Of a DNA stretch of 64,000 bases, positions 5,905 through 47,736 are shown piece by piece (the stretch's first letter is position 1; every line of letters starts with the position of its first letter). Below the pieces are notes generated by a model. The model was not told where the DNA came from. It ran no database searches and saw only the letters and a list, made by a program, of their open reading frames with translations. Both the position numbers and the translations under genes were made by a program. Source of the stretch: Ustilago trichophora (Eukaryota > Basidiomycota > Ustilaginomycetes > Ustilaginales > Ustilaginaceae); assembly GCA_900323505.1 (NCBI GenBank), contig OOIN01000011.1:620001-684000 (forward strand), in the 5' to 3' direction.

Positions 5905-8183
5905 TTTGGTGTCAAGGCTTTTAAGATGTAGTCTATTTGTATACTGGCTAGTGGTGGACTATTCCGTAGATGGAGAAGGTGGCGAAGGCCGCTGTTCTTG
6001 GAGAGGAGGTGACTGGGGAAAGGTAGAGTGATGGAAAGGGGATGGAGCAATTGTGTAGGAGAGGAGTGGAGTGGAGTGAGCGAAGCTCGATGAGGAAAGA
6101 GAGGAAAGAAGGACGAAGGATCGTTCCTAACCTCGGCCTCTTATACGCTCTTGCCGGTACGTGGCAGCATGTAGGGTGACCGTGTAGCAACCATCATCTG
6201 TTTGGTAGCACAGCGTGAATAGAGTGAAATTCACAGACCAGCTGGCACTGGAGCCGAGGTTGCTGCCCCTCAGCGACCGCAACTCCGCAAGGTTCGGAAG
6301 ATGGAGTTGAAGAGGGCGGCATAAGCATGGCACCTGGACGGCCCACTGCGAGCCCATGGATTCAACTCCACGACGCATCTTGACAGGAGCAAAGTGCGGC
6401 AAGGAGGCGAATCAACGGGCTCATGCTCATACAAAGGGTCCACATTGCGCATGGCGTCAAGCAGGAACACGAGGGCGAAGCCAAGTTGGGCAGGTAGAAG
6501 CTCTATGCGGAGTTTTAAAAAAAGACTGTCATGGCACATTGTCCTCTTTTATTCGTGCCGAAGGTTTAGGCGGTAACTAGGTAGCATGTTGCAATAGATA
6601 CTGCTTAAGCGCTGCTCATGACACTCAGTTGAGCCAAGACGTTGGTACTCGTCGGTTGTTCCCACGGTATGATCGGAGTGCATTGTCGAGATCTTGCAAG
6701 AGAGCATTGATCGGATGCGCTGCTTGTCAGGAGATGTGGGAATACTTGCTGGGTAAAAACGATCTCGTTGAGCTACCTTTTGACATCAAGCAAATGTACA
6801 GCGGCAACAGAGGCAAAGTTTGAGCATGCGAAAGAAAGCATCCGATGTGTGAGCATCAGCGTGGACGAGGGGTATAGCCGAACCGTCGAACTGTAATCTG
6901 ACGATCGCGAATCGAAGAGCTTCGAATCCGAGAATCTCTACAACCAGAGCGTTCGCCTCTCTGTCCGCGTGCTGCACTGCTGATGATCAGCGAGGTCTGG
7001 TTCCAACGATATGCAATTTATTTGCGGGCCTCCTTGCCGGATCTTGCGGCAGTGCTGTTCGAGATGTTGAACTGAAGGACAGGAGTTTGTGGCATTCCCA
7101 CATCTCGGGATAGTCGGGAATTGAGGCGTGCGAACCATGCCTTGTGAGTGGAAGTTGAACGTCAGCAACCTTGTGGTAGGCCAAACGCCACGAAAAGAAG
7201 GTTGGCAGAGGTTAAGCGCCAGGCGAGACAGGGGTCCTTTCTCGTGGCAGCACTTGCGTATGCTGTAACGAACGCAATGTAGATCTCGACTCGACCCTTT
7301 GTTGCATGAGACCCAAATTCCGTCGGAGGTTGAAACTGTTCCATCAATTGGCCTTTGACGACGTCAGAACCTCATCCTCAAGCTCTTCACACTTTGCATC
7401 TCTGGTCTGAACCATATGGTTGTTGATGATAAAACACCATCGAGCGTCACGGGATGGAGCAACTGCAATGCAAACAGCCCCTCTGCAAAAGGCCCGCAAA
7501 CAAGCAAGGAATTGTGTGCGTGAGTGAACCCGTGTCAAGCAGCTCGAAGCCATCTGCAAGGCAGCAGGACATGGCAAGCATGCAGCCTGCTTTTCAAATG
7601 TGCAACCTAGCTCTTCAATGACGAGCTTACTCCATCAACCGATTCCCACGGATGTTCACCTTCCTAATCAAGCGTCGCTAGAAGCTGCCTTCATGCATGA
7701 TTCAAAGATGCCGGCGTTTCCAGCGTGGTGCCTTTTTTAAAAAATAAAATAAAAAGGCCTGCCAAATTTGGACTTTTGTTGAACCAACTTCTCCTGTCCA
7801 ACATGGCATCGCCCGATTTTCCATGTTTCGGAAAATTCCATCGGCCAAGCGGAGAGGTGCTTATACAGCCAGCACCTGTCGATTTGGGCGATCCCACCCG
7901 AGAATGTAAATGTAGCCAGAAGACGATGTGTAAGCTGACAGATAGAGAAAGCTCGGGACGATGAGAACAGGGCTCTTCAAGATTGGGCTCCAGCTGCCTT
8001 TCGCAGACATTCTACGCCGACCTTGTCTCGTTCACTGCAGCTGTCCTAGCTACGTGAACGGTAGAGATCCTTTGCTGCCTCCTTAGACGACAGAGCTCGT
8101 ACGGTCTCAATGACGGTGCTCAATCGGAATTACATTGGTAGCCGTGCAAGCAGTCACAGGCAAAATACGCACACATACCAAAA
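5905..8183. other. Intergenic stretch between the GH18 gene and the retrotransposon
   Basis: About 2.3 kb with only short frames, none with recognisable motifs. The left 300 bp are purine-rich on the minus strand and probably contain the GH18 promoter and leader. A 13-nt inverted pair (6731-6743 and 7091-7103) has no extended similarity around it. No RNA gene was seen. Confidence 0.5.
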
Positions 8184-8287
8184 ATCACTCTCAAGAGAGC
8201 ACAGTCAGGTACACATGTCAGGAGAACGAAGTGAGTGAGAAAAAATTTGATTGCCTAACTCGGGAGAGTCGCTTGCGAGCTCCCAGC
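8184..8287 (-). repeat. Split direct repeat B2 (3' terminal copy)
   Basis: This 104-bp segment is repeated at 8582-8685 without any mismatch that I can find; similarity fades after CCCAGC. It is the outer 3' end of the element on the minus strand. Confidence 0.88.
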
Positions 8288-8412
8288 CGTGGCCGTAAGG
8301 GGCACGGATGGTCGAGCGTCGCGTGAAAGCGGGGCGAAAAGCGCGTGAGACCTAACAGACATGACAATCATGCAACTAACATGCAAAGCGTGAACAGGGA
8401 CGGGAGAGGCGG
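8288..8412 (-). other. Unique 125-bp spacer between A2 and B2
   Basis: This stretch separates A2 from B2. In the textbook Ngaro layout these two are adjacent, so the spacer is either part of a longer terminal unit or an insertion. It does not resemble the sequence next to A1. Confidence 0.7.
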
Positions 8413-8582
8413 GTGAGACGAAAAAAGAGCTGTCGACGACGTCGAGCAGCGAATGAGTGATGATGGTGAGAGAAGGAAGAGTGTCGAGTGCGACAACTCT
8501 GAAAAGACAAAGGACACACGTGTACACCGATCCCGTGCTCTCGGCCGAGTGAAGCTAGCGTCTGTTTCACATACGCTCTACA
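8413..8582 (-). repeat. Split direct repeat A2 (internal copy)
   Basis: A 170-bp segment identical over its full length to A1 at 14505-14674. It abuts B1, sharing base 8582, and so forms the internal junction that can template the ends during replication of a circular intermediate. Confidence 0.9.
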
Positions 8583-8685
8583 TCACTCTCAAGAGAGCAC
8601 AGTCAGGTACACATGTCAGGAGAACGAAGTGAGTGAGAAAAAATTTGATTGCCTAACTCGGGAGAGTCGCTTGCGAGCTCCCAGC
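8582..8685 (-). repeat. Split direct repeat B1 (internal copy)
   Basis: A 104-bp copy of B2, lying 94 bp downstream (minus strand) of the recombinase stop codon and directly against A2. Confidence 0.88.
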
Positions 8686-8779
8686 TGTGGCCACATGGTG
8701 TGCGAGTGGCGTACCGCATGGTGTAACGGTCATGAGCTGAGGCTGGAGAGCAAGGACAGGCAATCCCAGAGAAAGGTAA

Positions 8780-9796
8780 TCAGATATCGCGCCAGGCGAC
8801 GGTGTCGAGTGACAAGGGGGCTGTGGCATTGGTGTAGAGCGCCGCCTTGGTGGTGGCGGCGCGATCGGCAGCAGACTTGTCGATGTATCGACGGAAACAG
8901 TCACTTCGCCAACGGCCAAGTCCGCGAATGGTGTCATTGTCGACGCCGTTGGAGGCAGCCCACGTCGCGGCCCCTCGGCGGAAGGAGTGGCCCGAGTAGG
9001 CCAAGGGGTCGATTCCAGAGGCCGCGAGGCACCTGCACAAGGTGTCAACGAAACAAGACCTGTCGAAGGGCTTGCTGTCCTCGAGGATGAAGAGGGGTGC
9101 TGAAGACGGGCGTGACCGGCACACCACATCGAGAGCAGTGACGGCGCAAGTGCTGAGCAGGACGGCTGGTGCCGTGAGCGTGGCCCCCTGCCGGAAGGGA
9201 TCCGTCTTGCTGGCCGGGATGGTGATGGTCGCGAAGGACCTGTCGCTGGCAAAGCAGACCGAACCGACTGTGAGCATATTGTCGGTGTTTTGCGCTTTCC
9301 AAGTGAGCTCTCCTGAGCGGAGGAAGCAAGCAAAGGCGAGGCAAAAGGCGGCACGGAACATCCGACGGTTGTGTGGTGAGGGGCAGACTGTCGGCAGGGC
9401 ACGGAGGAGTTGGCGCAGAAGGGGAAGGGTGATGGCGAGCTTGGCGACAGGGAGCGGAGCACCAACGACTCGCTTGAGGCCTCGAACGACTCTGGCCAGG
9501 CGTTCGGAGTCGAAAACAACTGTGGAGAGGCCAAGGTCGAGGTGCCAAGACTTGATGATGGCGAGGTCACGCTTGACTGTGCTGTAAGTCTTGTTGGCCA
9601 GGTGTTGGGCGGCCACCCATTCGATGAGGAGTGTCTCTGAGGACGGGAAGGGGTGGCAACGTCGTGAAGCGGCGAAGGAGGCGAAGTCGAAGCACACCGT
9701 TGTGGAACGTGCGCGTGTGCTGGAGGCGAGTCCGTTCCAGAGGAGGAAGGCTGCTGGCGACGAGAGGCCTGAGGCCGAGACAAAGGGGGCGGGGGG
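8780..9796 (-). CDS. Tyrosine recombinase domain of the Ngaro-type element
   Basis: This is the phage-integrase-like recombinase that would insert the circular DNA copy without a target duplication. The SAM-like N-terminal part starts with FLLWNGLASSTRA (about 9760). Catalytic residues follow in order: Arg in FLRSGELTW, the beta-hairpin Lys in ASKTDPF, HxxR in HSFRRGAA, Trp in GLGRW, and the nucleophile Tyr in RRYIDKS. All expected positions are filled. The frame is open far upstream of 9697 but has no ATG, and it lies in the -1 frame relative to the RT-RNase H frame. I infer that it is made by a -1 shift near the C-runs at 9785-9796 (coding strand), or that an indel broke a single pol frame there. 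The start given is therefore approximate, but the stop codon at 8780-8782 is firm. Confidence 0.85.
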   Translation of the reverse strand, partial: PPAPFVSASGLSSPAAFLLWNGLASSTRARSTTVCFDFASFAASRRCHPFPSSETLLIEWVAAQHLANKTYSTVKRDLAIIKSWHLDLGLSTVVFDSERLARVVRGLKRVVGAPLPVAKLAITLPLLRQLLRALPTVCPSPHNRRMFRAAFCLAFACFLRSGELTWKAQNTDNMLTVGSVCFASDRSFATITIPASKTDPFRQGATLTAPAVLLSTCAVTALDVVCRSRPSSAPLFILEDSKPFDRSCFVDTLCRCLAASGIDPLAYSGHSFRRGAATWAASNGVDNDTIRGLGRWRSDCFRRYIDKSAADRAATTKAALYTNATAPLSLDTVAWRDI

Positions 9797-11946
9797 CTGG
9801 GAGCCGTATTGGACGCGTTGAACCGCAGGAGAGCGTACGCTCGAGGATAGTGTTGCTGGACGAAGGCAAAACGGCGGCGAGAGAGAGCGTCAGCAAGAAT
9901 GTTAGCTTCGGAGCTAACTCTAATCGGAACCAGGTCGATATGCTGCCGCAGGCAAAGGGCAAAGATCTCTCGAAAGAGTGCCTGGGTCTGAGGGTCGCGT
10001 ATGGAGCCTTTGCGAAGGCCATACTCGACATTCTCGTTGTCAACGTGTATGACCACCCGCCGAGGGCCAGACCAGAGGGGGGCAAAGATGCGAAGAGCCT
10101 CGAGGACGGCGAGGGCTTCCAGAAAGCGGATGTCTTTCTGTCGGTGGCGACGGGAGAGCTCCTTAGAGAAGGCGGCAGATGGAGAGGCCATGCTGCCTAA
10201 GTGTCCTCCGATGCTGCGTTTGGAGGCATCGGTCCAGACATGCTCGATGATGAGCGGCGATGGCTGAAGAAGGGACATGCCGTCCCAGGCCTGCAGTGTG
10301 TCGATCCACCACAGCAGTTCGGCACGGGTTGCTTTGCTGATCCGCCTGCCAAAGGGAGCCTTGTAGTGTGAGCGTATTGCGTCGTAGAGACGACGGAGGA
10401 AAGCTCGACCATGTGGGGCCACTCGTGTGACAAACTGTAAGTGACCGGCTACCTGTTGAAGTTCGAGCAGGGAGGCTCGACCACGTTCGACAATACGTGA
10501 GCACAGCTGTAAGATGCGCTGGCGGCGTTGCTGAGTGATAGAAGCAGTCTGGGCCACCGAATCGAGTTCAATTCCAAGTATCTCAAGCTTGGTGGTGTCC
10601 CAGACCGTCTTCTTGTGGCTGAGCTTGAAACCAAGCGCAGCAGCAGAGAGGCTAAGCACTTGGATCGGCGTGGCGGCGGCGGCGGTGGTGTCGGAAGCAC
10701 CAAAGAAGTCGTCGAGATAGTGCGACACGTCGGAATGTGACGTCGACGACGGTGACACAGCCTGCAAGGCGAAGGAAGCTAGCCAATGCAGGAACTCGGC
10801 GAATAGGTTGAAAAGGAATGGCGACGAGCGTCCTCCAAACGCAAGTGCGCATTCCTGGAAATACTGACCGTCAAAGTGGATGCCCATGAGTCTTGCATCA
10901 GACTCGGCCACGATGACGTGTCGGAAAGCATCTTCCAAGTCTGCTTTCCACAGAGAGGCGCTGGGATGTTCCCGGATGAAGTCCATGATCGCGTCCAAAC
11001 TCTCGTAGTGGATGGTGACAAAGGAAGTGTTGATACCGTCGTTGATCGACGGTAGGCGGGGACCCGGCTTGCGAGGATGAGAGAGGTGGTAAATGGTCCT
11101 CCTCTTGTCGCTATGGGGCTTGGGGACGACACCGACTGGCGAGCAGACTAACTGGATGCTGGCAGGGTCGGTGACGTGGCAGAGGCGGCCTTCTGCCAGG
11201 CGAGCCTCAATCTCTCGACGAAGATGGTGTACATCGTCGGAGTCCATGGGTAAGTTGGTGACGTCTAGACGCGCATTATGGCGTAGAGGACCGTCGTATC
11301 CAAGCTTGACGCCATGTTGCAAAGCACCTCGCAGTTGAGAGGCGAAGGCTTGGTCGGGGTAAAGGTCTAGGAAGTTAGACCAGTGGCTAAGTTGGAGCGT
11401 ACCAATCGTCGCTGGGACGTCGGCAGCCTCGAAGATTGGTTGCTCGCACAAGGTATTGGGCCTTGGCGGCGGGGGGGATTGACCTGCAATCAGGGAAAGG
11501 AGTATTGGCGAGGCGAGGTCAGGCGACATGTCGACGATGCCAGAAGAGAGGGAGTCCAAGGTTGGACGAGGCGAAGGTGCTGCATTGTGAGCAGACCTAT
11601 AAGGTACGATTGTACGCTGACCAGGCGAAGGTGGTGCTGTTGTACGCTGACCAGGCAATGTTGAAGGTTCGAAGAGTATCTCCGACCTGTGAAGTGTGGG
11701 TTGTGGCGCCACAGACCAAGTTGGTTTGGTTGAGTGCTGACCAGGCAGAGGACGAGGTGCTGAGAGGAGCTCAGACCTGTGTGGTGCATTATGAGGCCGA
11801 CCAGGCAGGAACGAAGGTGCAGAGAGAGTCTCTGACCTGTGAGGCGCTGCGTAGAGCAAGCCGCCTGAGTGAGAAGGCGTACTCACCATTAGGTTGCCTT
11901 CTTGAGGGGAGGGTTGGTGGCCGACTTGCTGGCAAGCATCGGACAT
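9785..11946 (-). CDS. Reverse transcriptase-RNase H of the Ngaro-type element
   Basis: This is the pol protein that copies the element RNA. The first ATG is at 11946, overlapping the end of gag by 58 bp in the -1 frame; the open frame itself extends to 11982 with a GTG. The N-terminal 150 residues are proline-rich with repeats built on HRSE...LPGQ. Reverse transcriptase follows, with the first catalytic Asp in LWKADLEDAFRH, then ALAFGGRSSPFLFN and the YLDD box (SHYLDDFFGA, 10704-10720). RNase H comes next, with TDAS, the LEAL Glu, the HVDNEN Asp and ILADALSR. RT and RNase H look intact. The frame stays open to 8653, but past about 9790 the translation is low-complexity Ser/Pro shadow of the recombinase frame, so I end the functional part at the C-run. 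Confidence 0.85.
11500..11880 (-). repeat. Imperfect tandem repeats inside pol
   Basis: Units of roughly 60-80 bp share the strings CTGGTCGGC/CTGGTCAGC and AGGTC(T/A)GA on the minus strand and encode repeated LPGQ/LPGR and HRSE peptides. They make up the Pro/Ser-rich leader of the pol product and probably form a flexible linker. Confidence 0.6.
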
Positions 11947-13154
11947 TGTGTCAACGGATGCTTGTGCTGGCAGTGCAAGCACGCTTGGTGGCGGCTGCAG
12001 CCAGGGCAGGGTTGGCCGGCGTTGTAACGGCGGCAGGGGTCGAAAGAGCCTGCGGCAGCGATGGCGCGAGTCACGCGATTCTGAGGTCGCGATGACGAGG
12101 AGGTTGGCTGACGAGAGCTAGAGCTCGTCTCGCCGCGGTTGGTGAAGTTGCCAGTCTTGATCCGAGGGTACAAGATCTGGCTGCTGAGTTCTTGGTCGTA
12201 GGAAGACCACTCGTGAACAGCGCCAGTGCCAAACCGTCGTCGACAGACTGCCAAATGATAGTCGGCGACGGCTTGCCACTGGTAGAGGTGGTCGCACTCA
12301 AGGAGGTGCTCGAGATAAGCGAGTAAGGCCTCGTTGAGCGCGAGGGAACCAGTGTGGCGGACTCTGATGGCAATGTATACCAACCAGATATGAGCCAGCG
12401 CGGCAATGTTGGGGATGGCCTTGACGAACGTGGAGACACGTGTCTCGGCGGATTCCTGGGTGTAGGTAAGGGCGCCACCGTCACCGATTGTGACCGGTGT
12501 TGCCTGAGGAGGCTCCTTAGAGACTCGAGACTCCGGGTTGCGAAGCTTGACCAGCTGCTCTGGTTTGAGCTGGTCTCATTCGACGAGGGCGACGACCTCT
12601 TGTGGGACCCAGGCGAAGCAGCGAGAGAGGGAGAGCGGAGGCAACTCACCTGTGGTACCAGAAGGTTGACCAGCAGAGGGGAGTGCCAACGCAACTGCTG
12701 GTGGTGCTTGAGGTCGAGGAGGGGGTGGTGGCAGAGTCTGCACAGAGGAAGGCGGGACTGGCGAGGGGGCTGGGGGCGGCGAGGCTGGAGAGGCAGCCTG
12801 CTGCGAAGCTCGTATGGTGTGGAGGAGCTCGCCGAGTTGAGAGTCCAGCCGTTGTTCCAGACGGCCAAAACGCTCCTCAAGTGCTGCAACCGACGATGCA
12901 GAGGCGTAACCACCAGGATCGCGGTTTGCACGGGTGGAGAGGGGGGAGGCGCTAGCGGAAGGGGGAGAACTCGAGCGTCGACGCGAGAGAGATCGGACGC
13001 TCGGTGTGCCTACTGGCGTTTGAGTCGCTCGAGCAGCCGTCTTATGTGCGCTGCGACAGGTAGAGCAGCGCTTGACAGGTCTGCCACGAGCACCGACAAA
13101 GGCGGAGGGCGGGTAACTGTGCTTGCAGCGAGGGCAAGGCAGTAACCTCGTCAT
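11889..13154 (-). pseudogene. gag-like ORF of the Ngaro-type element, interrupted by one TGA
   Basis: A 421-codon frame from the ATG at 13154 to the stop at 11889, interrupted only by TGA at 12576-12578; the frame is the same on both sides. The N-terminal part has a CxxC...CxxC zinc-ribbon-like motif (CPRCKHSYPPSAF ... CSTCR), then an Arg/Ser-rich stretch, a short coiled-coil-like helix (LEERFGRLEQRLDSQLGELL) and a Pro-rich region. The C-terminal part has a Cys/His-rich cluster (CRRYNAGQPCPGC, HQACLHCQHKHPLTQC) like the nucleic-acid-binding tail of other YR-element gag proteins. The stop reads as CGA changed to TGA. Either the copy is inactive for gag, or the codon is bypassed; mutation is more likely. 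Confidence 0.75.
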
Positions 13155-14504
13155 GGAGAAAGAAGAGACTCTGGAGAGCGTGTGTGACGGTGTGCCAGAC
13201 CTATCAACACAGGGTCGCAGAGTGGGAAAGGTATAAGGACTGTGGAGAGCTCAAGAGGGCTTGCCAGGCCACTACGAGAGATGCACAGCCCGTCGGCAAT
13301 GACGTTGAACAAAGCCCGCTTGTCGAGCCAATGCTTGCCTCCACTGAGCTACGTGGAGATGGCGTTACACCGTATGCAGTTGACGGTGCCTGTCGCTATC
13401 AACGTCGTCCTGTTGATAGATGAATCGAACGTGTTTGAGCACGTCGAGCCCCCTTAAGGTTATCTCTTGAATTGCTTCGGGCCCAGCGAGAGATGTTCAC
13501 CACCGTCGTCAGTGGTGCTTGTCGATGTGGGATACCTCCCTCGCGAGGCGCCACACTGGTCGAATGTGAGGGCTGACCTCACGACAGAACCCGCGAGAAC
13601 ACTGTGCGCCGACAGCGAACCACCACACGAGGGTGTTCCTCCAGTCGACGAGCTGGGGGGGGCGATACTCTGGGTGACCAGAGCCTGTTGGACACCAATC
13701 GTGTCAACCGTGGTGAGCTGCAGGAGATCAACACAGCTGAGGGCGGTCAACCCACCCAGCGCAGCTATGATTGACTGGGGCACTACTCCCAGGGTCGCGT
13801 GTCGGCAGTATTTCAAGCAGCTCGCTAGGCCACTAGACTGCGATACTCTCTTAGTGTCGAAGAGAGCCTGTTGGAATCCCCTGGACTAAAGGGGGATGTG
13901 GGCAGCGGTCGCAGAAAGGAAGGGGAAGGGGGAAAGGAGGAAAGGAGAGGGGGTCGTACGACGCAGAGAGCGCGAAGACGGGCCAAGGCGAGTCGTGGTG
14001 TGGGTAGACTCACGGACGACGAGGAGAGCGAAGAGTGAGGCGACGAAGGCCAGGGGGCAGACGCCGAGTCACCAAGGAGTCGTACGACGCTCGTGGAGCG
14101 AAGACGGGGGAGGGGAAGCTTGTCGTGGTGGGGAAGGGAGACAGCCACGACGGGACAACGGGCCGGAACCGCTTGGGGAAGTGGCAGGAAGCCACGGGAA
14201 AGGAAGGGAGGATCTTGAGGCCGCCCAAAGAGAGTGTCGAGTGGCTGCGGCCACGAGGTAGGTCTTGAGGAACGAAAGGGCGCGTACGACGGCTGGAGCA
14301 AGTCGCAGAGGCTGTCTCGAGTCTTGAGGAGGGGGGAGGAGTGTGCAGAGGCGTACAACAACAGCGTGGAGTGTGGCTGAGTCGCAGAGGCCGGCGAGGA
14401 CGAGGGTTGGTCCGCAACGGACCAGGCGAAGTGTGTCGAGCAGCGGCGTGCAACTGCTTGTTGGATGGGCTGCGGCGTGGCTTGTCACGACCAGAGGTGT
14501 CAAA
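13155..14504 (-). other. Long untranslated leader of the Ngaro-type element
   Basis: About 1.35 kb between A1 and the gag ATG. It contains purine-biased imperfect repeats, for example GTCGTACGACGC followed by GCGAAGACGG at about 13950 and again at about 14088, and GAGCCTGTTGGA at about 13680 and 13865. I find no convincing protein here; it may hold the promoter and packaging signals. Confidence 0.55.
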
Positions 14505-14674
14505 GTGAGACGAAAAAAGAGCTGTCGACGACGTCGAGCAGCGAATGAGTGATGATGGTGAGAGAAGGAAGAGTGTCGAGTGCGACAACTCTGAAAAGAC
14601 AAAGGACACACGTGTACACCGATCCCGTGCTCTCGGCCGAGTGAAGCTAGCGTCTGTTTCACATACGCTCTACA
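14505..14674 (-). repeat. Split direct repeat A1 (5' terminal copy)
   Basis: This is 170 bp identical to A2. It forms the 5' end of the element on the minus strand and lies 72 bp from the stop codon of the Zn2Cys6 gene. Confidence 0.9.
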
Positions 14675-14746
14675 GACTTTCCAAAAAAACAGCAACTCCA
14701 TTAGAGATGCATGACAATTAATTTATTTCTCTTCTTTCAAGCAATT

Positions 14747-17707
14747 TTACTGCTGACGCTGGCCATTGAGGAACCCACTGCTCGTGCTGCCATCGTCGTA
14801 GCTCGTGGAGAGTCCGACGGTTAGCGAGGCGTCGAGATTGCTTGTCGAGTTAAGAGAAGACGGGGCAAAGGGATGTTGAGTGTCTGCGCTGCTGTGATCA
14901 TTGTTGCTATAGGACTGCTGAGTGGCGGTCTCGTTCCTCGCCAGTGGATAGGGACCGTGGTGGTTGGCAGAGGATGCTACGACTTGACCGCTGGGTAGGA
15001 CTGCTTCGTTGCCGAACATGCCCGAAAGGGCGTCTGAGGGATACGAATGCGTGCTGTTGAGCAGTTGCGTCGCTGGATAGCTGCGTGTACCCTGGGTGTG
15101 GTCTGGGTGAGAAGGAAGCATGGTGCTCGGTCCAGCGGCGAGGGGAAGGGATGGGGTGGACGAAGAGGAAGGTGGCTGAGTGTAGCTATATGCTCCACTG
15201 CTTACGTGGTCCAAGCCCAGATCGAGATGGTCTGGAAGAGCGGATGCGGAGACCGAGAATACGGCGGAAGACGCCGATGCCGGAGGGGAGATCGATGAAG
15301 CCATGGCCATATTGGACAAGGCTCCTTCGGAGGTTGGAGTCCAAGGGCCACTCCCAGCAGCAACAGAGGAGGCGGCGGCGGCGGCGGCGGCGTTGGCAGC
15401 GGTGACTGACATGCCCAACAACGAAGGAGGCCAATGAGGCTCACCAAGACTAGCTTCGATGCTTATACTCGCCGTATCCTCCGAGCCTGAGACGTAGCCA
15501 CTGCTTCCTCCCATTCCTCCTCCACTAGTCCACCTGTCTCCCGTCAGATGCGGAGACCATTCGGAGCCACCACGTTCTGATCCAGCCGACTCTGACAAGG
15601 CTCCGGCGCTTCGACCTCCGACGCTGCCCAGTTCGACCCTCACAAGAGAACCATTGGAAGTGCGTCGTCGCTGCTTTCTGTTCTGCCCATCGCTCCAGTC
15701 CTGGCTGCCGGAGCCTGTGCTTCTACTCTGAGATCCCATCTGATAGGATGTATACGTGTTGCTCTGGTCTTGCGTCTCGCGCGCTCGCTTGGGACTTGTA
15801 CCAGAGCTGGGAGAGATGAGCACAGCACCATCTCCGACGAGCGAACGAAGCGCTTGGTCCAGCTGTCCAGTGATCTCGTTGGTCGTCGGTACGCGGTTGC
15901 CATCGGGGTAGAACTGTGGTTGGGCTAGCAGGCGGATGACCTTGCTGACACGCTCTCGGGCACGTTCGGTCGTCGAAAGGTGATGTCGAATCGCCCGTTG
16001 CTGATCTTGCGACTCGATGGGCAAGAGCCATCTTGCAGCGGTCAGACAGCCCGAAGCCATGTACTGCGGGCTGAATCGAAGCATCGAAGAAGACGTAGCG
16101 TCCTGGTCGAGGATCTTGGTCGAGAACGTTTGGAGCACCTTGAAAGCTAGCTCTGTCGCCGCTGTGAACCAGCGCTCCTCCAACTGCGAGGGGGTGTTAG
16201 AGACTCCGCCAAAGCTTTGCACATTGCCACACTGGCTAGACTGTCTCGCAGCAGCCGCTGCGGTGGTATGCAGCTGTACCGCCCTTGCAAAGCGGTACAG
16301 GAGCAGAAAGTAGCCCGCCTCGGCGTTGCTATACCTATCCATACCGTAGCGTGCGACATACTCGTCTCCGTACATGTTGTACCAAGTCGAAAAGCAATCG
16401 CGCTCTTGCATCATCAGGGCCTCGATGGATCGGCTCAGCTCGCTTTCCTCCGTCTGAGCAGAAGTCGCAAGCCGGTTGAAGCTTCGCTGCGAGAGTGCAA
16501 AGTCGAGCTGGTAAGCGAGTCGCGTGTCGTAGGCTGACATGGTCGAGTTGTTGAGCTCGTACCAAACGCGAACATTTGGAAAATCGGCTTGCGCAATCAG
16601 CTCTGGTCGCTTCTGCATCGACGTACGCCTCGAATCGCTCTGCTGGCTCAGCTCGAGAAGACACAGTTGGATCCAGGTGCGCTGCTGCATGCGTAGCATG
16701 GTGGTCTGGTGGCCTCCGTGTAGGAGGTGGATGGGGAGTGGCGGAGTGTACGGCTTGGTGGCAGAGCTCACGGCTACACCAGCCTCAAAGCAGAATGGCA
16801 GGCCGAGTTCGTATGCGTATGCGATAGCGGCAGAGAGTGTCTCGGATCGGGTAGCATCACCGGGTAGCGCCCAGATGGCAGAAACGATGAGCGCCTGGAT
16901 GTGATCGATGCTGCACAGCTGGCGGGCAGAGGCGAACTTGAGGATGGATGCTGCTGCTGTCTGACATTGAAGATGCAGGTCTGGGCGGAAGAAGCGGCTA
17001 GAGATGCCAAGGATGGTGGAGAAGAGAATCGGCGACTGCTCCCGCGTATATTGCACTGTGTGCAACCCAGGCTCCAGCAGCGCGACAATCGGGTTGAGCT
17101 GAGTAGAGAAGAGGCTGAAGAGGTAGCAAGCGTCTGTCCAGCTGCATGCGTTCATGCGAACAACATCATCGTACGCGCTCGAAGCCATCCCAACGGGGCT
17201 GGGCAAGCTTGAGGATGCCAACCCTGTTACACCGTAGGTCTGCGCGGCGAAAGAGCCCGAGTATGATGCAGACATGTTGTTGGACGGCATGGCGAGTTGT
17301 GCTGCGTCTTCGGCATTGTCTGTGATCGCTACAGACGCCATGTCGAGGTTGAGGGGGTAGCTGCTGCATCGCAGCATGTTGAGGCGTGCACGGCGGAGCA
17401 TGTTAGGAGAGAGGACGACATTACGGTTCTCGTCGGCAATCACTTTTTCGAGCTTTTTGCCACGGTGGTGCTCGCGGAACTCGCAGAAGAGGTCGAGTCG
17501 GTTGCATCGTGCACAACGAGGGTCATTCGGGTTGCTCTTCCAGCACTTGACCTTGATGGCGCGGCACTTGAGGCAGGCAAGATTCGAGCCTCGCTTGGCC
17601 GGTGTGGCAGTACTCTGACCAGCGGCGTTAGCGCCGCAATTTGAGCCGGTCAAGGCTGCAATGTCGCCGCTCGCCTGCGAGTTGGTGAGACGATGTGGGT
17701 GTTGCTG

Positions 17708-17740
<33 letters not shown>

Positions 17741-17977
17741 TGGTACTTGCTGCTGATAGTGCGCTTGACGCTGGTAGTCGTCGTGATAGTGCTGCTGCAT
17801 CAGTGGAACACCTCGAGCCTGGTACGACTCGGCATACTGGTGATAGTCGTGGCGGTTCGAAGGTCTCGAGCCGCTCGAGTAGGACGAGGCTGCCGTCGCA
17901 GCCGAATCGGATGCTTCCGAGAAGAAGCCAAAATCGTCCATGCTCATGACGCTTACTGGACCAGTTGAAAATCCCAT
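14747..17977 (-). CDS. Zn(II)2Cys6 fungal-type transcription factor
   Basis: A 1076-residue nuclear regulator. The binuclear zinc cluster sits at about residues 132-162 with six cysteines in the order CxxC (ACLKCRAIKVKC), C after a short loop (DPRC), CxxC (ARCNRLDLFC), followed by a basic linker (REHHRGKKLEK). A glutamine run (residues about 78-91, CTG/TTG repeats at about 17701-17742) precedes it. The middle region (about 270-650) is alpha-helical and resembles the fungal middle homology region; the C-terminal 400 residues are Ser/Gly/Ala-rich and probably activating. One exon from the ATG at 17977; ATGs at 17947 and 17941 are alternatives. Target genes cannot be inferred. The Ngaro-type element sits just beyond its 3' end in the same orientation. 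Confidence 0.88.
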
Positions 17978-20900
17978 GAGAGATACCTTCGCAGGTGGGT
18001 ACGTTCACGCTTGTTGGAAAACTGGTCGGCAAAGCAAGCCCTTTGTCTACGTCTTGTTCGCCCTGAACGCCAGTCTTTCGGGAGCTTGGCAAGTGCACAG
18101 AAGATTCTATCCTGCCTGGTGTCAGAAGGCGACCGGATGGAAGGTTGATGATCACGTCCAAGGAGGCGATGTCGAGTGGAAGGCGAAGGGTGTAGGTGAG
18201 AGGGAAGCAGAGTGGCGAGGTTGGTATGGTATACAGAGTCTGCAGCTTATGAGGAATGGTCGAATGAACGAAAGAATGATTGGGTGTGCAAGATCGTCTG
18301 ACAAACGCTAGCTGTCTTCACGAGAGGAAAGCTGGGGTTTGCATGAACCGTGGGTGACACGCAAAAGATAGGAGCATTGTCAGGAACTTGATGGTAGTTT
18401 CGGAAGTGTGTGTAGATTCTGCGCGGGTCCCTGCAGCGCCAACGATCTTTTGGGTGTCTATGTGTGTGGGTGGCGGCCAGGAACCATGGGAACGATCGGA
18501 GATGGAGATAGCTAGGCAGTCGTAGAGCCGCCAAACGAAGGAGGTCTTGATCTCGGTGTGAAAGATGGAAGGAAAGGCAACAAGGTTGGGCAAGGGGCAC
18601 AAAGGGCTCAACTCTTTGCGCAAGGCACAGTTGTCACACCTACCAACGGGACACTGAGGAATGCATCCGAACCCACAAACGAGGAAAGAGGGAGGAAGAA
18701 GATTCGAGCGCTGACATCAGTGCAAAGTGCAACAGAGCAAATCTCAGGACCGGGTCTGCGGAAACTGGCGGAGATGAATGGGGTTCGGGTTCTTGCTGCA
18801 CTGTGAGTTAAAAGCGATGCACCCACAATCAAATGTCGACCATGACACCCAGATGGTTGTCATGGTCTCATCACTAGGCTTTGACTAGTGGCCAGTGACC
18901 AGCTGGGCAACACCGACCGAATTGGGGTCCGGACTCATGCACCATCGCACCGACGAGGGCGAGCTGCTGCTGTTGCTAAGGACAAGCTGTTCGACTATCG
19001 TGCGTGGCGTCGGAAGACGAAAGGAGGACAAGGGTTTGAACCGCAAATTGTGAGCCGCAAGGGCATCATTCATCTGAGTCGGCTTGGGAAGATGGTCACA
19101 AAGAGAAGGCAGAGGTGTGCTTATGCTGCATAGATTGGTTGGTTCTACAGGACACAAATGGCAGTGTTCTGTGCACAAGCAAGATGGCTATGTTCTGCAT
19201 GAGAGTCGCCAGGAGCTACGGTGCATTTTGCTTAGCTGTCCATTTTTTTTCTCTTTTCTTTTTTTGGTTCCACGCCATTCCGCTCTCCTCTCCTCTGCCT
19301 TTGTCATCTGCCCCGTCCCTTTCTGAATCAGTCGAAGCTACAGGATCTTAGGAGTCGTCGACTTGCGACTATCTCATTGTGCTCATTCGATAGGAAGGCA
19401 GAGAAAGGCACTCGCTGTTGAGGCGGTATTCGTCGGGAGGGGCTCTTTTCAAAAAGATGTAAAAAAAAAAAGAAAAAGAAAAAGGAGTCGCTGTCACTCT
19501 TTGAGACATTTTGGCATTGCGTGCAGCAGCCCAGTGGGCGGGGTTATCGAGTTATTTAGGGAAGTTCTCTTTTGCGGTTCTTTCCGCACACCTAGTCGTG
19601 TCAGGTTCGGTCCGGTCGGGATCCTTTGGCGCCACTCGTTGGTCTGAGTACATTTTGATCAGTCGGTCTGTGTATCACCGTTCTCGGGTGTTGACAGAAC
19701 TCGCTTAGCTTTGGATTGGCGCCTCGGAGTCGAAATCTCGTCCATTTTCCGAGACCAAAGAGCTCGAATGAGATCAGCTTTCATGTACCTAGATTGGAAC
19801 ATGGGATTCGTAAGATCACACGACGAGCCCTGCCCCAGCAGAAAGGTACGTGCTCTTACACTGCGAAGCACAGTATCTGGGGAGAGGCCAGCAGCCAGGG
19901 CAGGAGTAATGTGTCGGAGTTGGCCTTTCCTTTTTTGGCAATATTGCTTATTTTGTCGACGTACGACTCACATGCTTCTCTCGGGTAGGGCTTGTGAGTG
20001 GAGGAGGTTCTTCGAGAGATGATGGGCAAGAGCGGTAGACACGAGAGGCTTATTGAGGACAGACTCTGGACCAGGAACATCGCCGGTCAGGTGGAACAGT
20101 CTACAGATGCTTTGCCAAATCATGCAGCCTAAATAAAGGCAGTCTGTCAGTGTCTGTCAGAGACCACCCGACCGAACCACCACCGAATGTCAAAAGGAAA
20201 AGAAAAGAAATGTTGGCAATTTTGCTGTCGGAGCCCGAAATGATTTCCTCTGTCGATGAGAGAAGGCAGATCGTCAGCGAGCATTCTCTCCCTGTTGAGA
20301 CATTGTCAATGAAACGTGGCCGGAAAAGGAGGGCAAGGACTGTGCATACTTGGCCCGGCATGTGTCCATGAAGACAACGTGACTGACTGCCTGTGTCCAG
20401 CTGAACAGCCAGCTGCCGCCCTTCTTTGTGCCGCTGGACATTTTCATGCCGAGCTACAGTAGCAGAGACGTTCTTTGTCGTGAGACTTGATTCTGCGGGG
20501 TATTATGTGGTTGAGTGGCGAGTGGCGAGAGAGCTGCCGAGCTACGATGCAATTCGTTGTGTTCGTGCTTGAGATGCAGAACGACAAATGATCTGGCTTG
20601 GAGTCCTTGCGGTCCATGACGGTCCGGTCGTTGAAGGGATTGTTGTCTTCGGACTTGAATGATCTGACGACAACAACTAGCAAAGGCGAGGGCAAAAGGG
20701 TGTTTGAACAGCATCATGCACGAATTCAAACGCCGGCCGCATCAGTACCAGTAACTTACGAGCCCACTGCACGCGGGCCGTGGTCGGCCGATGGACCACT
20801 CACGAGCCATCGCTGCTGGCTGAGAGATGTAAAGTACTGTACAGTAGCTCGATATCGCACTGGTACAGACATGCAGTCAGACCCTTTTATGATCCAATCG

Positions 20901-44961: not shown

Positions 44962-47736
44962 CTATGCAGTTTGATCCATCTCCAGCTTGCCACCTTCCGG
45001 GCTAACCGCTTCACTATGCAACCCCGACCCAGGATCCGTACCCATATTCAATTCATACGCCATCATACTCTCATCCGTCCATCCCAGCGGTGCTCCCCTC
45101 CCCGTGATACTAGGATCATCCGACATGGGAAGACCCAACTTCTCCCTCAACTGTTCAATCTCCTTTCTGCACACCAACAGTGCCTGGTCTCTTCTCTCCA
45201 GTCTCTTCTTGAGACGCACCAGATACTCGTTGCTGTGTCGTAAGAGTGCCACCTTGCTAATGGCTTTATTGGCCGAACGGGCCATTTCCGGATCACCCAC
45301 TTCAGAAGGCTCAAAGTGCTCCGCCTCCCGATCCTCTTCCACTCCATCCGGTCCCAAAAGCGAGCCGTTGGGTGCATCTTCATCGAGTGTGATGGCAGGA
45401 AGAAGACCGCGAAGTTCGTCAAAGCAGAATTTGAGAGAGTCGCGACGCTTCTGTTCTGCGGCTTTGTGAGATGTTCGCCGAGATTCAAGTCCGCCTGCTG
45501 ACTTGTACGACATCCAGGCATCCCGATCGGCTTGCGAAAGTCCGCCTGGTTGGATCGGCATCCCTCCCATCTGGGGAGGAAGATTGAATGTCACTTTGGG
45601 CCCAGTGGTGGAGGAAGGGAAGGGAGCAATGTTGGGATACATTTGGTGTGGGGGTGCTTGCTGGGTTGGCATTCCCATTGATGGCTGTTGCTGTTGCGGT
45701 TGCTGCATCATGATCTGCTGCTGCTGCTGCTGCTGCTGGAAATCATCGCGGTTCTTGCCTTTGAGTGCGGAGGAGATGGCAGCGCCAACACCGGTACCGC
45801 GGTTATTGGGGGAATTTGCTGAGCGCTGATCAAGTGATGTACCACTTGAAGGGCTGGAGCGAATACCCATGATGGAACTGGGCGTCAAAATCTTATTCGT
45901 CGGGCCCGAAGGAGGAGGCATAGCCCCACCACCCGACAAGTCGATCGGCGAAGGCGTCGAAGAAGTACCTTCGCTCTGTCCTGCTTCCGTTGACTGATGC
46001 CTCGAGTGTGAACCTACTCCAGCATCGGGAGCAGCCGTGATGGAAGCCCTACGCGAGCTTGGACCTGAAGATCCACCATTGGCCAACCCATTGCCGTTCG
46101 CCAAAGGCGTTGCTGTGCTGGGCGATGCGAGGCTGGCTGCATCCTTCTTCTTCTTGATGGAAGGACCGGGCACGGGCTTGATTAAGGGCGAGGGTCGAAC
46201 CTTGTTGGCACGCGCTTCGGCGGTGGTGCTTCGGTTCTTGCGAATCTTGGAGGAACCCTTTGCGATCAAGGCAAGTGGCGAAGCGGTGGGGGTGAAGTTG
46301 CTGTTGACTGCGTTGATGGCCGGTGAACCGTGCATGGCGGCTTGCTGCGACTGTTGGTGGTGCTGCAGCTGGGCTGGAGGCAGCATCATCTCGCCCAGAC
46401 TTGGTGGCTGAGGACCTAGCGCTGGCGAGGTAAGCGGTGAAAAGAGCTCAGACATGACAATGCCAGTGCTACCCGTCGAGAACACGCTGGCCGGTGTCAC
46501 GGCTGGCGACTCAAGAGGAGTATAGCTGCCCAAGTAGTCATGACCTGGCCTGTGCTCCACACCGACACTACCAGGCTGCGAGTTGGGCTGAATGGTGAGG
46601 GGGGACATAAAGTTGGCCGAACCGGGTGGGCATGCGGAGCTGTTGAAAGGTCCAGAGCCCATAGGTGTGATGAGACCGTACTGAGCCAATACGTTGGACT
46701 GGTCGCCCTGCGCACCAGCTTGGCCCTGAACACCGTTCATCTGTGCTTGTTGCTGCTGCCATGCGTTTTGACCTTGAGCGTGCTGTTGCTGATGCGGCTG
46801 GTATTGCGCAGCTTGAAGCACGTTGTTGTGTGCACTGGGGTTGTTGCCGGCAGCGAAAGCGTTCTGCAAAGCCATCAGGAGACTCTGCTGCTGACCAGGC
46901 GAGAGCTGCCCTGCGGATCCGGACAGATTGAGTTGCAGATTGGAGGAAGGACCGGCACCCTGCATATGCTGCTGAGGCTGCTGATGTTGTTGTGGCTGCT
47001 GAGGCTGCTGCTGTTGCCGATGTTGTTGCTGCTGCTGTTGCTGCTGATGCAAGCGCGAAAGTTGATCCAATTGCTGCTTGAGAAGAGCGGTCTGCATGTT
47101 CTGAATGCGTTCGGTCCTCTCACGCTCGAGAAGCATCTGCTGTAAGTCTGAGATGGAAAGCTGAGGCACCTGAGCATCCTGCTCATTGGACTGCGATTGT
47201 GTCGAATGCGACGCCTGCATCGAAGGCGCAGCGTGGTTCGAGTCAGCAAAATTGGAGCCGGCAAAGTTCATGTCGGACGGTGCCGCAGATGGCGGGCGTC
47301 TGTGACTGTGCTCGTTGGATGTAGGATTGTTGCTGGCGCTGGCTTGTGGGCTGGCCGACGAGGTGTTGTCGAAGCGGTTACGCGAGAAGCCCAGCGGAGA
47401 GCTGGCGTGCGAGGAGCTGTTCAAGTAAATGCCTGCAGTGTGACTGTTGGATGGAGGGTGGGATTGGGTGTTCGAGTCTGATGAAGCAGCAGTGGCCACG
47501 TGGCCAAAGTTGGCGGAAGGGCTTGGATGATGACTGACGGGAGCTGAACCTGCTTCGGACTGTGCGTTGTGCGTAGAAGAAGGTGCAGTATTGCTGCTGG
47601 GGAAGATGTTGAGATCTTCGATACCCGAGTTGGCGGTAGAGAAATCGGGGTTGCCAAAGTCGAACGTGTCCATAAAGGAGTTTGGCGTTGATGACGATGG
47701 GAAGGGGTTATAGGACGAGGCTGGACTGTTCTGCAT
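44962..47736 (-). CDS. Glutamine-rich basic helix-loop-helix transcription factor
   Basis: A 924-residue protein from the ATG at 47736; an upstream GTG at 47754 was not used. The bHLH lies at about residues 750-850: the basic region SHKAAEQKRRDSLK has His, Glu and Arg at the spacing that recognises CACGTG E-boxes, helix 1 is FCFDELRGLLP, helix 2 is NKAISKVALLRHSNEYLVRLKKRLERRD, and a leucine-zipper-like coil follows (ALLVCRKEIEQLREKLGL). The loop is unusually long (about 50 residues, acidic). The N-terminal half carries glutamine-rich tracts, probably activating, and a second run near 45710. There is no intron in the frame. It might belong to the SREBP/Mlx-like branch, but I cannot assign it further. 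Confidence 0.9.
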   Translation of the reverse strand: MQNSPASSYNPFPSSSTPNSFMDTFDFGNPDFSTANSGIEDLNIFPSSNTAPSSTHNAQSEAGSAPVSHHPSPSANFGHVATAASSDSNTQSHPPSNSHTAGIYLNSSSHASSPLGFSRNRFDNTSSASPQASASNNPTSNEHSHRRPPSAAPSDMNFAGSNFADSNHAAPSMQASHSTQSQSNEQDAQVPQLSISDLQQMLLERERTERIQNMQTALLKQQLDQLSRLHQQQQQQQQHRQQQQPQQPQQHQQPQQHMQGAGPSSNLQLNLSGSAGQLSPGQQQSLLMALQNAFAAGNNPSAHNNVLQAAQYQPHQQQHAQGQNAWQQQQAQMNGVQGQAGAQGDQSNVLAQYGLITPMGSGPFNSSACPPGSANFMSPLTIQPNSQPGSVGVEHRPGHDYLGSYTPLESPAVTPASVFSTGSTGIVMSELFSPLTSPALGPQPPSLGEMMLPPAQLQHHQQSQQAAMHGSPAINAVNSNFTPTASPLALIAKGSSKIRKNRSTTAEARANKVRPSPLIKPVPGPSIKKKKDAASLASPSTATPLANGNGLANGGSSGPSSRRASITAAPDAGVGSHSRHQSTEAGQSEGTSSTPSPIDLSGGGAMPPPSGPTNKILTPSSIMGIRSSPSSGTSLDQRSANSPNNRGTGVGAAISSALKGKNRDDFQQQQQQQQIMMQQPQQQQPSMGMPTQQAPPHQMYPNIAPFPSSTTGPKVTFNLPPQMGGMPIQPGGLSQADRDAWMSYKSAGGLESRRTSHKAAEQKRRDSLKFCFDELRGLLPAITLDEDAPNGSLLGPDGVEEDREAEHFEPSEVGDPEMARSANKAISKVALLRHSNEYLVRLKKRLERRDQALLVCRKEIEQLREKLGLPMSDDPSITGRGAPLGWTDESMMAYELNMGTDPGSGLHSEAVSPEGGKLEMDQTA

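What the first reader, a model, noticed from the sequence alone, without database searches (positions are those of the whole stretch)
8184..14674. Near-intact Ngaro-type tyrosine-recombinase retrotransposon with complete split-repeat architecture
The sequence shows A1, internal B1-A2 and terminal B2 repeats, and gag-, RT-RNase H- and YR-coding frames. All YR catalytic residues (R, K, HxxR, W, Y) and the YLDD box are present. The A copies are identical over 170 bp. YR retrotransposons are rare compared with gypsy/copia elements and are patchily distributed in basidiomycetes; I am not aware of a well-described family from smut fungi. It may be an undescribed Ngaro lineage.
Basis: partly seen in the sequence, partly recalled or inferred. 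Interest (0 to 1): 0.85.

Follow-up and report, generated by a model that had tools for sequence, protein, structure and literature searches.

The report
Ngaro retrotransposon in a smut fungus
A jumping gene that copies itself through RNA but probably inserts with a Cre-like recombinase instead of the usual integrase sits, recently and cleanly inserted, in a smut fungus, in a fungal group where a published survey had found none.

Summary
The window copy is not intact: gag has a private stop. It is one of 10 copies in two subfamilies plus a solo A-B, among 48 YR matches. The subfamilies share repeats (93-96%) and YR (93%), but gag is 54% identical and most of the leader does not align; AU tests support module exchange between lineages.
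By structure this is Ngaro. A 2013 survey (PMC3783388) reported Ngaro absent from Ustilaginomycetes; named relatives now occur in at least four smut genera. Placement against curated Ngaro/DIRS references could not be tested, and the main U. hordei transposon paper is not held. New member of a known kind.

The parts
8185..14674 (-). whole element, 6,490 bp, T-GTAGAG...GAGTGA in element sense; the ends may be read one base lower (8184-14673) because one A/T base is shared with the target
   Evidence: repeats; junctions; empty site
14505..14674 (-). A1 (5' terminal repeat), 170 bp
   Evidence: 100% identical to A2
11889..13154 (-). gag-like ORF, 421 codons, with a CxxC...CxxC stretch near the N terminus and a Cys/His-rich stretch near the C terminus (read by eye); broken by one in-frame stop at 12576-12578
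   Evidence: no Pfam match above cut-off, so the gag label rests on place and Cys/His stretches
8653..12117 (-). RT-RNase H reading frame (1,154 codons open; RT and RNase H end near 9770, after which the frame merely stays open across YR)
10564..10968 (-). reverse transcriptase domain (RVT_1 match) with YLDD at 10708-10719
10006..10239 (-). RNase H domain (RT_RNaseH match)
8780..9889 (-). tyrosine recombinase ORF, 369 codons, -1 frame to RT-RNase H, no ATG before codon 177; R191, K228, H301, R304, W327, Y335
   Evidence: AlphaFold model; Cre fold
8582..8692 (-). B1 (internal repeat, abuts A2), 111 bp
8413..8582 (-). A2 (internal copy of A), 170 bp; shares base 8582 with B1
8295..8412 (-). 118-bp spacer between A2 and B2
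   Evidence: coordinates
8184..8294 (-). B2 (3' terminal repeat), 111 bp, 1 mismatch to B1
14747..18004 (-). host Zn2Cys6 transcription-factor reading frame; the element starts 72 bp after its stop codon, in the same direction
   Evidence: the homeologous region on contig C11 lacks the element

Best explanation
This is a young, multicopy Ngaro-type YR retrotransposon of a smut fungus. Shown by sequence: A1-gag/RT-RH/YR-B1A2-B2 architecture, a predicted Cre-fold recombinase with all catalytic residues, and an insertion into an otherwise unbroken homeologous sequence with no duplication or loss. Inferred: the RNA is reverse transcribed, the B1A2 junction serves as the template that rejoins the ends so that a circle with a B-A junction (TGA^TG) forms, and YR recombines that junction with a chromosomal site, usually one that offers the same central T. 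Also inferred: each cycle rewrites A1 from A2, which explains why A1 follows A2 rather than its own neighbour sequence in mosaic subfamilies. The window copy cannot make full-length Gag and could move only with Gag from other copies.
Against: No circle, cDNA or transcript was observed. Copy L013 has AAGGAG on both sides, a 6-bp match expected by chance in about 0.002 of such sets, which conservative recombination does not predict. The left flank next to the window's insertion aligns to C11 only with gaps: the search matched it to about 390 bp from the insertion, the rest was aligned by script. Empty-site alignments for L014, L013 and C8 are too diverged to be exact. The T preference was seen before it was tested, with the end set at GA by eye. 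How YR is translated is unresolved.
Confidence: 0.92

Rival explanations
1. A PAT/DIRS-group element that has lost its methyltransferase and so only looks like Ngaro.
For: PMC4157794 (passages) describes such a form in Caenorhabditis briggsae; PAT elements also carry split direct repeats. No curated Ngaro or DIRS sequence could be put in the tree.
Against: No methyltransferase match in the ORFs scanned. PMC3783388 found DIRS only in early-branching fungi and Ngaro in Basidiomycota. The smut RTs are homologous over RT-RH to those of Lyophyllum and coral proteins that carry a YR-like C-terminus by eye, which does not by itself tell Ngaro from PAT.
Confidence: 0.06
2. The difference between subfamilies s1 and s2 is not exchange of modules but fast evolution of leader, gag and the RT N-terminus on one shared history.
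For: gag and the RT N-terminal linker diverge faster than RT in all eleven comparisons.
Against: gag rejects s1+s2 as one clade (AU p 0.018) and s1+s2+L024 (p 9.5e-5), whereas YR holds s1+s2 together (SH-aLRT 98) and rejects L024 with L026/L031/L032 (p 2.9e-5), the group that gag favours. The clades were named after the quick trees were seen, gag branches are long, and that gag group has support 80/99 only in the careful tree.
Confidence: 0.15
3. The empty homeolog is a site from which the element was precisely lost, not a site never filled.
For: YR could in principle excise a circle.
Against: A1/A2 identity 169/169 and 99% identity to three copies elsewhere indicate a recent insertion, while the homeologous flanks differ by 15-25% where they align.
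Confidence: 0.04

Closest known systems
Ngaro elements of Basidiomycota (groups 1-4 of PMC3783388: Agaricomycotina, Puccinia, Melampsora)
   Same: A-pol-B-A-B order, gag, RT-RH and YR frames, YR may be frameshifted, no methyltransferase
   Different: host subphylum: that survey found none in Ustilaginomycetes; whether the smut elements fall in one of groups 1-4 was not testable here
Ngaro elements of Cafeteria burkhardae (PMC8547959, passages) and Xenopus (PMC9210276, passages)
   Same: A1-[ORFs]-B1A2B2, about 6 kb, solo AB repeats (Cafeteria); Xenopus A 236 bp and B 152 bp
   Different: here A 170 and B 111 bp; no SGNH hydrolase match in the ORFs scanned, unlike Xenopus
DIRS1-like / PAT elements
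   Same: RT-RH plus tyrosine recombinase; PAT also has split direct repeats
   Different: no methyltransferase match and no inverted repeat of 30 bp or more
Cre recombinase (fold of the YR protein)
   Different: 17% identity; no loxP-like inverted arms were shown for the element ends

Membership tests
Ngaro | split direct repeats A1-[ORFs]-B1A2-B2 | tested here: met
   same order in seven of ten diverged copies checked
Ngaro | RT-RNase H followed by a tyrosine recombinase | tested here: met
   Pfam; Cre fold; catalytic residues
Ngaro | gag-like first ORF | tested here: inconclusive
   ORF in the right place with Cys/His stretches and conserved in copies; no Pfam match above cut-off
Ngaro | no methyltransferase domain | tested here: met
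   no such match in the four element ORF stretches or the nine further window ORFs and one sister gag; not every short frame was scanned
Ngaro | no DDE integrase and no aspartic protease | tested here: met
   no such match in the same stretches
Ngaro | integration without target-site duplication (recalled for YR elements) | tested here: met
   empty site; 9 of 10 junction pairs with 0-1 bp match, C9 none; exception L013 with 6 bp
Ngaro | RT and YR cluster with curated Ngaro references | tested here: inconclusive
   tree has agaric and coral RTs but no curated Ngaro or DIRS row
DIRS1-like | inverted terminal repeats with internal complementary region | tested here: not met
   no inverted repeat of 30 bp or more in 7000-16000
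DIRS/PAT | methyltransferase domain | tested here: not met
   no match in the stretches scanned
Crypton | tyrosine recombinase without reverse transcriptase (recalled) | tested here: not met
   RT and RNase H present
VIPER | kinetoplastid lineage of YR retrotransposons | not tested
   no VIPER sequence was compared

The most novel reading that the evidence does not exclude
Smut fungi hold an old, diverse Ngaro lineage whose members trade a 5' module (leader-gag-RT N-terminus) against a 3' module (RH-YR-B1A2B2) by template switching, while A1 is rewritten from A2 at each cycle; their YR inserts circles at chromosomal sites that share a central T. If so, Ngaro did not enter Basidiomycota only after the smuts split off, and a smut assembly with two homeologous subgenomes becomes a natural assay for YR-retrotransposon integration.
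Probability: 0.55. Interest if true: 0.6.

Novelty: new member of a known kind. Interest (0 to 1): 0.42.

Why it matters
It fills a gap that a fungal-kingdom survey read as an absence and used to discuss when Ngaro entered Basidiomycota. Copies with empty homeologous sites and mosaic relatives give testable evidence on how YR retrotransposons rejoin their ends and choose insertion sites, a step that, as far as I recall, rests mostly on models. It also shows that many 'uncharacterized' smut proteins in the databases are transposon products, some with doubtful gene models.

Tried and rejected
Long RT-RH frame as a real extended protein: the frame is open through YR in 13 of 16 copies with a usable YR frame (5 of 21 rows were unusable because the YR start was misplaced or the frame is broken). 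Synonymous shuffles give P of 0.001-0.04 in those 13, but near-copies are not independent and the third frame is also short of stops; substitutions follow YR codons (18/9/50). Treated as a side effect of composition, not a protein.

YR expression by a conserved -1 slippery heptamer or an intron: in the alignment of 21 copies I saw no canonical heptamer and no GT...AG pair conserved (by eye); the database models that splice RT-RH to YR cut at different places in P0001 and P0004. Left open.

YR against solved structures by sequence gave nothing useful with one sequence and only weak Cre rows (E 0.18 and worse) with a profile; the fold comparison settled it.

I saw no protein labelled Ngaro or DIRS in the rows shown (120 of 129, 153 and 224 hits; names cut short), so assignment to groups 1-4 was dropped. 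Left out of trees: L023 (no gag row), L018, L025, L033. The RT tree used 39 of 148 listed RT proteins, chosen by hand, plus 4 of the copies; five rows have odd composition and P0117 is a long branch. Diverged families with 42-48% YR identity are represented by one fetched copy (L034). Paper search is uninformative: 10 of 229 papers were shown, none of them with the word Ngaro. One search showed 20 of 26.

Full report

STATE OF THE COPY. gag carries one in-frame stop at 12576-12578. Among 20 copies with a gag match (some partial), only the window's match holds a stop. Of the 10 copies of the two nearest subfamilies, 6 show neither stop nor frame break within the gag, RT-RH and YR segments compared; one of these lacks A2-B2, one is split by an insert and one has a one-base shift between segments. 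Changes private to one of the four nearest copies fall mostly on CpG: 14 of 17 in the window copy and 49 of 68 in all, while CpG holds 16% of the bases. That looks like deamination of methylated CpG or a RIP-like process; RIP-like signatures in some smut genomes are mentioned in PMC12210899 (passage).

HOST. The assembly holds 38.8 Mb in 45 contigs. Database proteins named UTRI (Ustilago trichophora) lie on contigs of 1,928,903, 744,227, 682,140, 883,677, 933,033, 471,450, 1,539,439, 686,962, 1,134,607 and 2,214,801 bases, the lengths of C4, C21, C26, C13, C16, C38, C7, C27, C11 and C3. Five other UTRI lengths (1,222,527; 692,910; 457,654; 2,679,685; 622,504) equal none of the 16 contig lengths that I saw of the 45. 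I take the host as U. trichophora.

EMPTY SITE. The right flank matches contig C11 at 85% from its third base on. The left flank matches at 75% as far as about 390 bp from the insertion and from there on only in a gapped alignment. A stretch 30 kb further on matches the same contig in order at 90%. C11 runs through the insertion point without the element: window flanks joined CCAAAAAGACTTTCC, C11 CGAAAAAGTCTTTCC. Apart from substitutions between the homeologs, filled and empty sites differ near the insertion by the element alone, with one A/T base common to both ends, the target and the internal B1-A2 junction. A second copy (L022, C4) has a homeolog on C8 that reads without duplication; whether its target base was A or a T with a neighbouring indel is ambiguous. 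For L014 and C8 the homeologs are too diverged for an exact reading. L013 shows AAGGAG on both sides, which I cannot explain.

INSERTION SITES. In element sense the 5' end is T-GTAGAG in 11 of 11 insertions of the two nearest subfamilies, solo included. The first base after the 3' end is T in 13 of 18 insertions across all families with a readable end, A in 3, C in 2 (p 3e-5 against 0.25). The end was set by eye and the test made afterwards. In diverged families the shared stretch can be longer (AT in L030 and L031, TGAT in L026, similar in L032). This fits recombination of a circle junction TGA^TG with a target sharing its central T. It is inference from sequence; no circle was seen.

FAMILY. 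YR gives 48 matches and RT 57 in the assembly, pieces included. Subfamily s1 is the window copy, L013, L014, L022 (99% identical). s2 is L015-L017 and L019-L021; the A1 of the L017 copy lies on L018, behind a large insert. All 20 A matches are accounted for by these 10 copies and a solo A-B on C2. The C9 copy (L015) ends directly after one B. Of ten diverged copies checked, seven (L026, L027, L028, L030, L031, L032, L034) have their own A (174-264 bp) and B (113-123 bp) in the same order; L023 has only B, and L024 and L029 showed no such pair.

MOSAICS. Window against s2 (L016): gag 54%, RT N-terminal part 38%, RT 84%, RH 88%, YR 94%; against L030: 59, 49, 84, 81, 70%. A and B are 93-96% identical between s1 and L016, yet of the 1,350-bp leader next to A1 only about 450 bp align, none of it within the first 565 bp. 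gag and YR trees disagree. AU tests: YR rejects L024+L026+L031+L032 (p 2.9e-5); gag rejects s1+s2+L024 (p 9.5e-5) and s1+s2 (p 0.018). The clades were chosen after seeing the quick trees. I read this as exchange of 5' and 3' modules, with A1 rewritten from A2.

YR FRAME. YR lies in the -1 frame to RT-RH in 20 of 21 copies aligned (L022 differs by one base); in those 20 the YR frame is bounded upstream by a stop within the codons of the ADALSR motif or its equivalent. The window's YR frame has no ATG before codon 177. Frameshift or splicing must supply the N terminus; which one is open. [quoted passage not shown]

RELATIVES AND LITERATURE. The 120 listed of 129 RT-RH hits include named proteins of U. 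trichophora, U. hordei, U. bromivora, U. nuda, U. tritici, U. esculenta, two Ustilago sp., Sporisorium scitamineum, Melanopsichium pennsylvanicum and Pseudozyma flocculosa; I saw no U. maydis in the rows shown. In a tree of 43 RTs the 17 smut rows form one clade (SH-aLRT 99, with 2 unnamed rows), four agaric rows another (99, with 3 unnamed rows), and the coral row lies with other unnamed rows (quick search). Of these agaric and coral proteins I looked at Lyophyllum and coral, which carry a YR-like C-terminus by eye. The smut clade splits into two deep lineages, each with several species, which suggests age rather than one recent entry; transfer is not excluded.

PMC3783388 (parts 1-4 of 5 read) states that Ngaro is absent from Ustilaginomycetes and proposes entry after Ustilaginomycotina diverged, while allowing loss or unsampled taxa; its genomes were downloaded before November 2011 and I did not see its genome list. 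Searches with Ngaro and ustilag, Ngaro and smut, and retrotransposon with Ustilaginomycotina and tyrosine recombinase (6, 3 and 1 papers) listed no report of Ngaro from Ustilaginomycotina; of these I opened PMC3783388, PMC7181583, PMC5977194, PMC554778 and PMC12210899 at the passages, the rest as listing only. Against a wide reading of 'smut': Microbotryum, an anther smut of Pucciniomycotina, has 57 DIRS-order copies (PMC4469406, passages). A Tilletia caries paper lists 'Gypsy/DIRS1', which I take as a RepeatMasker class line (PMC10684912, passages). Laurie et al. 2012 on U. hordei transposons is not held, so an earlier mention there cannot be excluded. Also seen as passages: PMC4157794, PMC8547959, PMC9210276, PMC8951962, PMC5897528.

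VERDICT. The observation and its main reading hold. It is an ordinary member of Ngaro by design, in a fungal group where it was reported missing, with good evidence for clean insertion and for mosaic descent.

Noticed in passing
window (C10:620001-684000) and contig C11:249123-278631: The 38.8-Mb assembly seems to hold two syntenic subgenomes 75-90% identical, while U. trichophora NBRC 100157 (PMC8951962, passage) and RK089 (PMC4966473, listing) are about 20.7 Mb: a hybrid, a diploid or a mixed culture.
   Followed up: partly
L013 (C42), flanks of the element: AAGGAG stands on both sides of the element, a 6-bp target-duplication-like match unlike the other ten junction pairs.
   Followed up: partly
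C4:1554731 and C8:1015402: Two Ngaro copies of different subfamilies sit in homeologous stretches, roughly 250 bp apart and in opposite orientation: a possible insertion hot region.
   Followed up: no
window 8185-14674 and L013, L014, L022: Private changes are mostly transitions at CpG (49 of 68 at CpG), a methylation or RIP-like signature.
   Followed up: partly
L017/L018 (C8:1014000-1030897): A copy whose A1 and B2 ends lie about 14 kb apart, so roughly 8 kb of other DNA is inserted in it; the insert was not identified.
   Followed up: no
window 46967-47050: A stretch of about 80 bp with 60 further matches of 73-89% identity listed across the assembly, apparently a widespread coding or simple repeat.
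   Followed up: no
database proteins P0001, P0004 (UTRI): Gene models splice RT-RH to YR at different places and drop the end of RNase H, probably annotation artefacts.
   Followed up: partly
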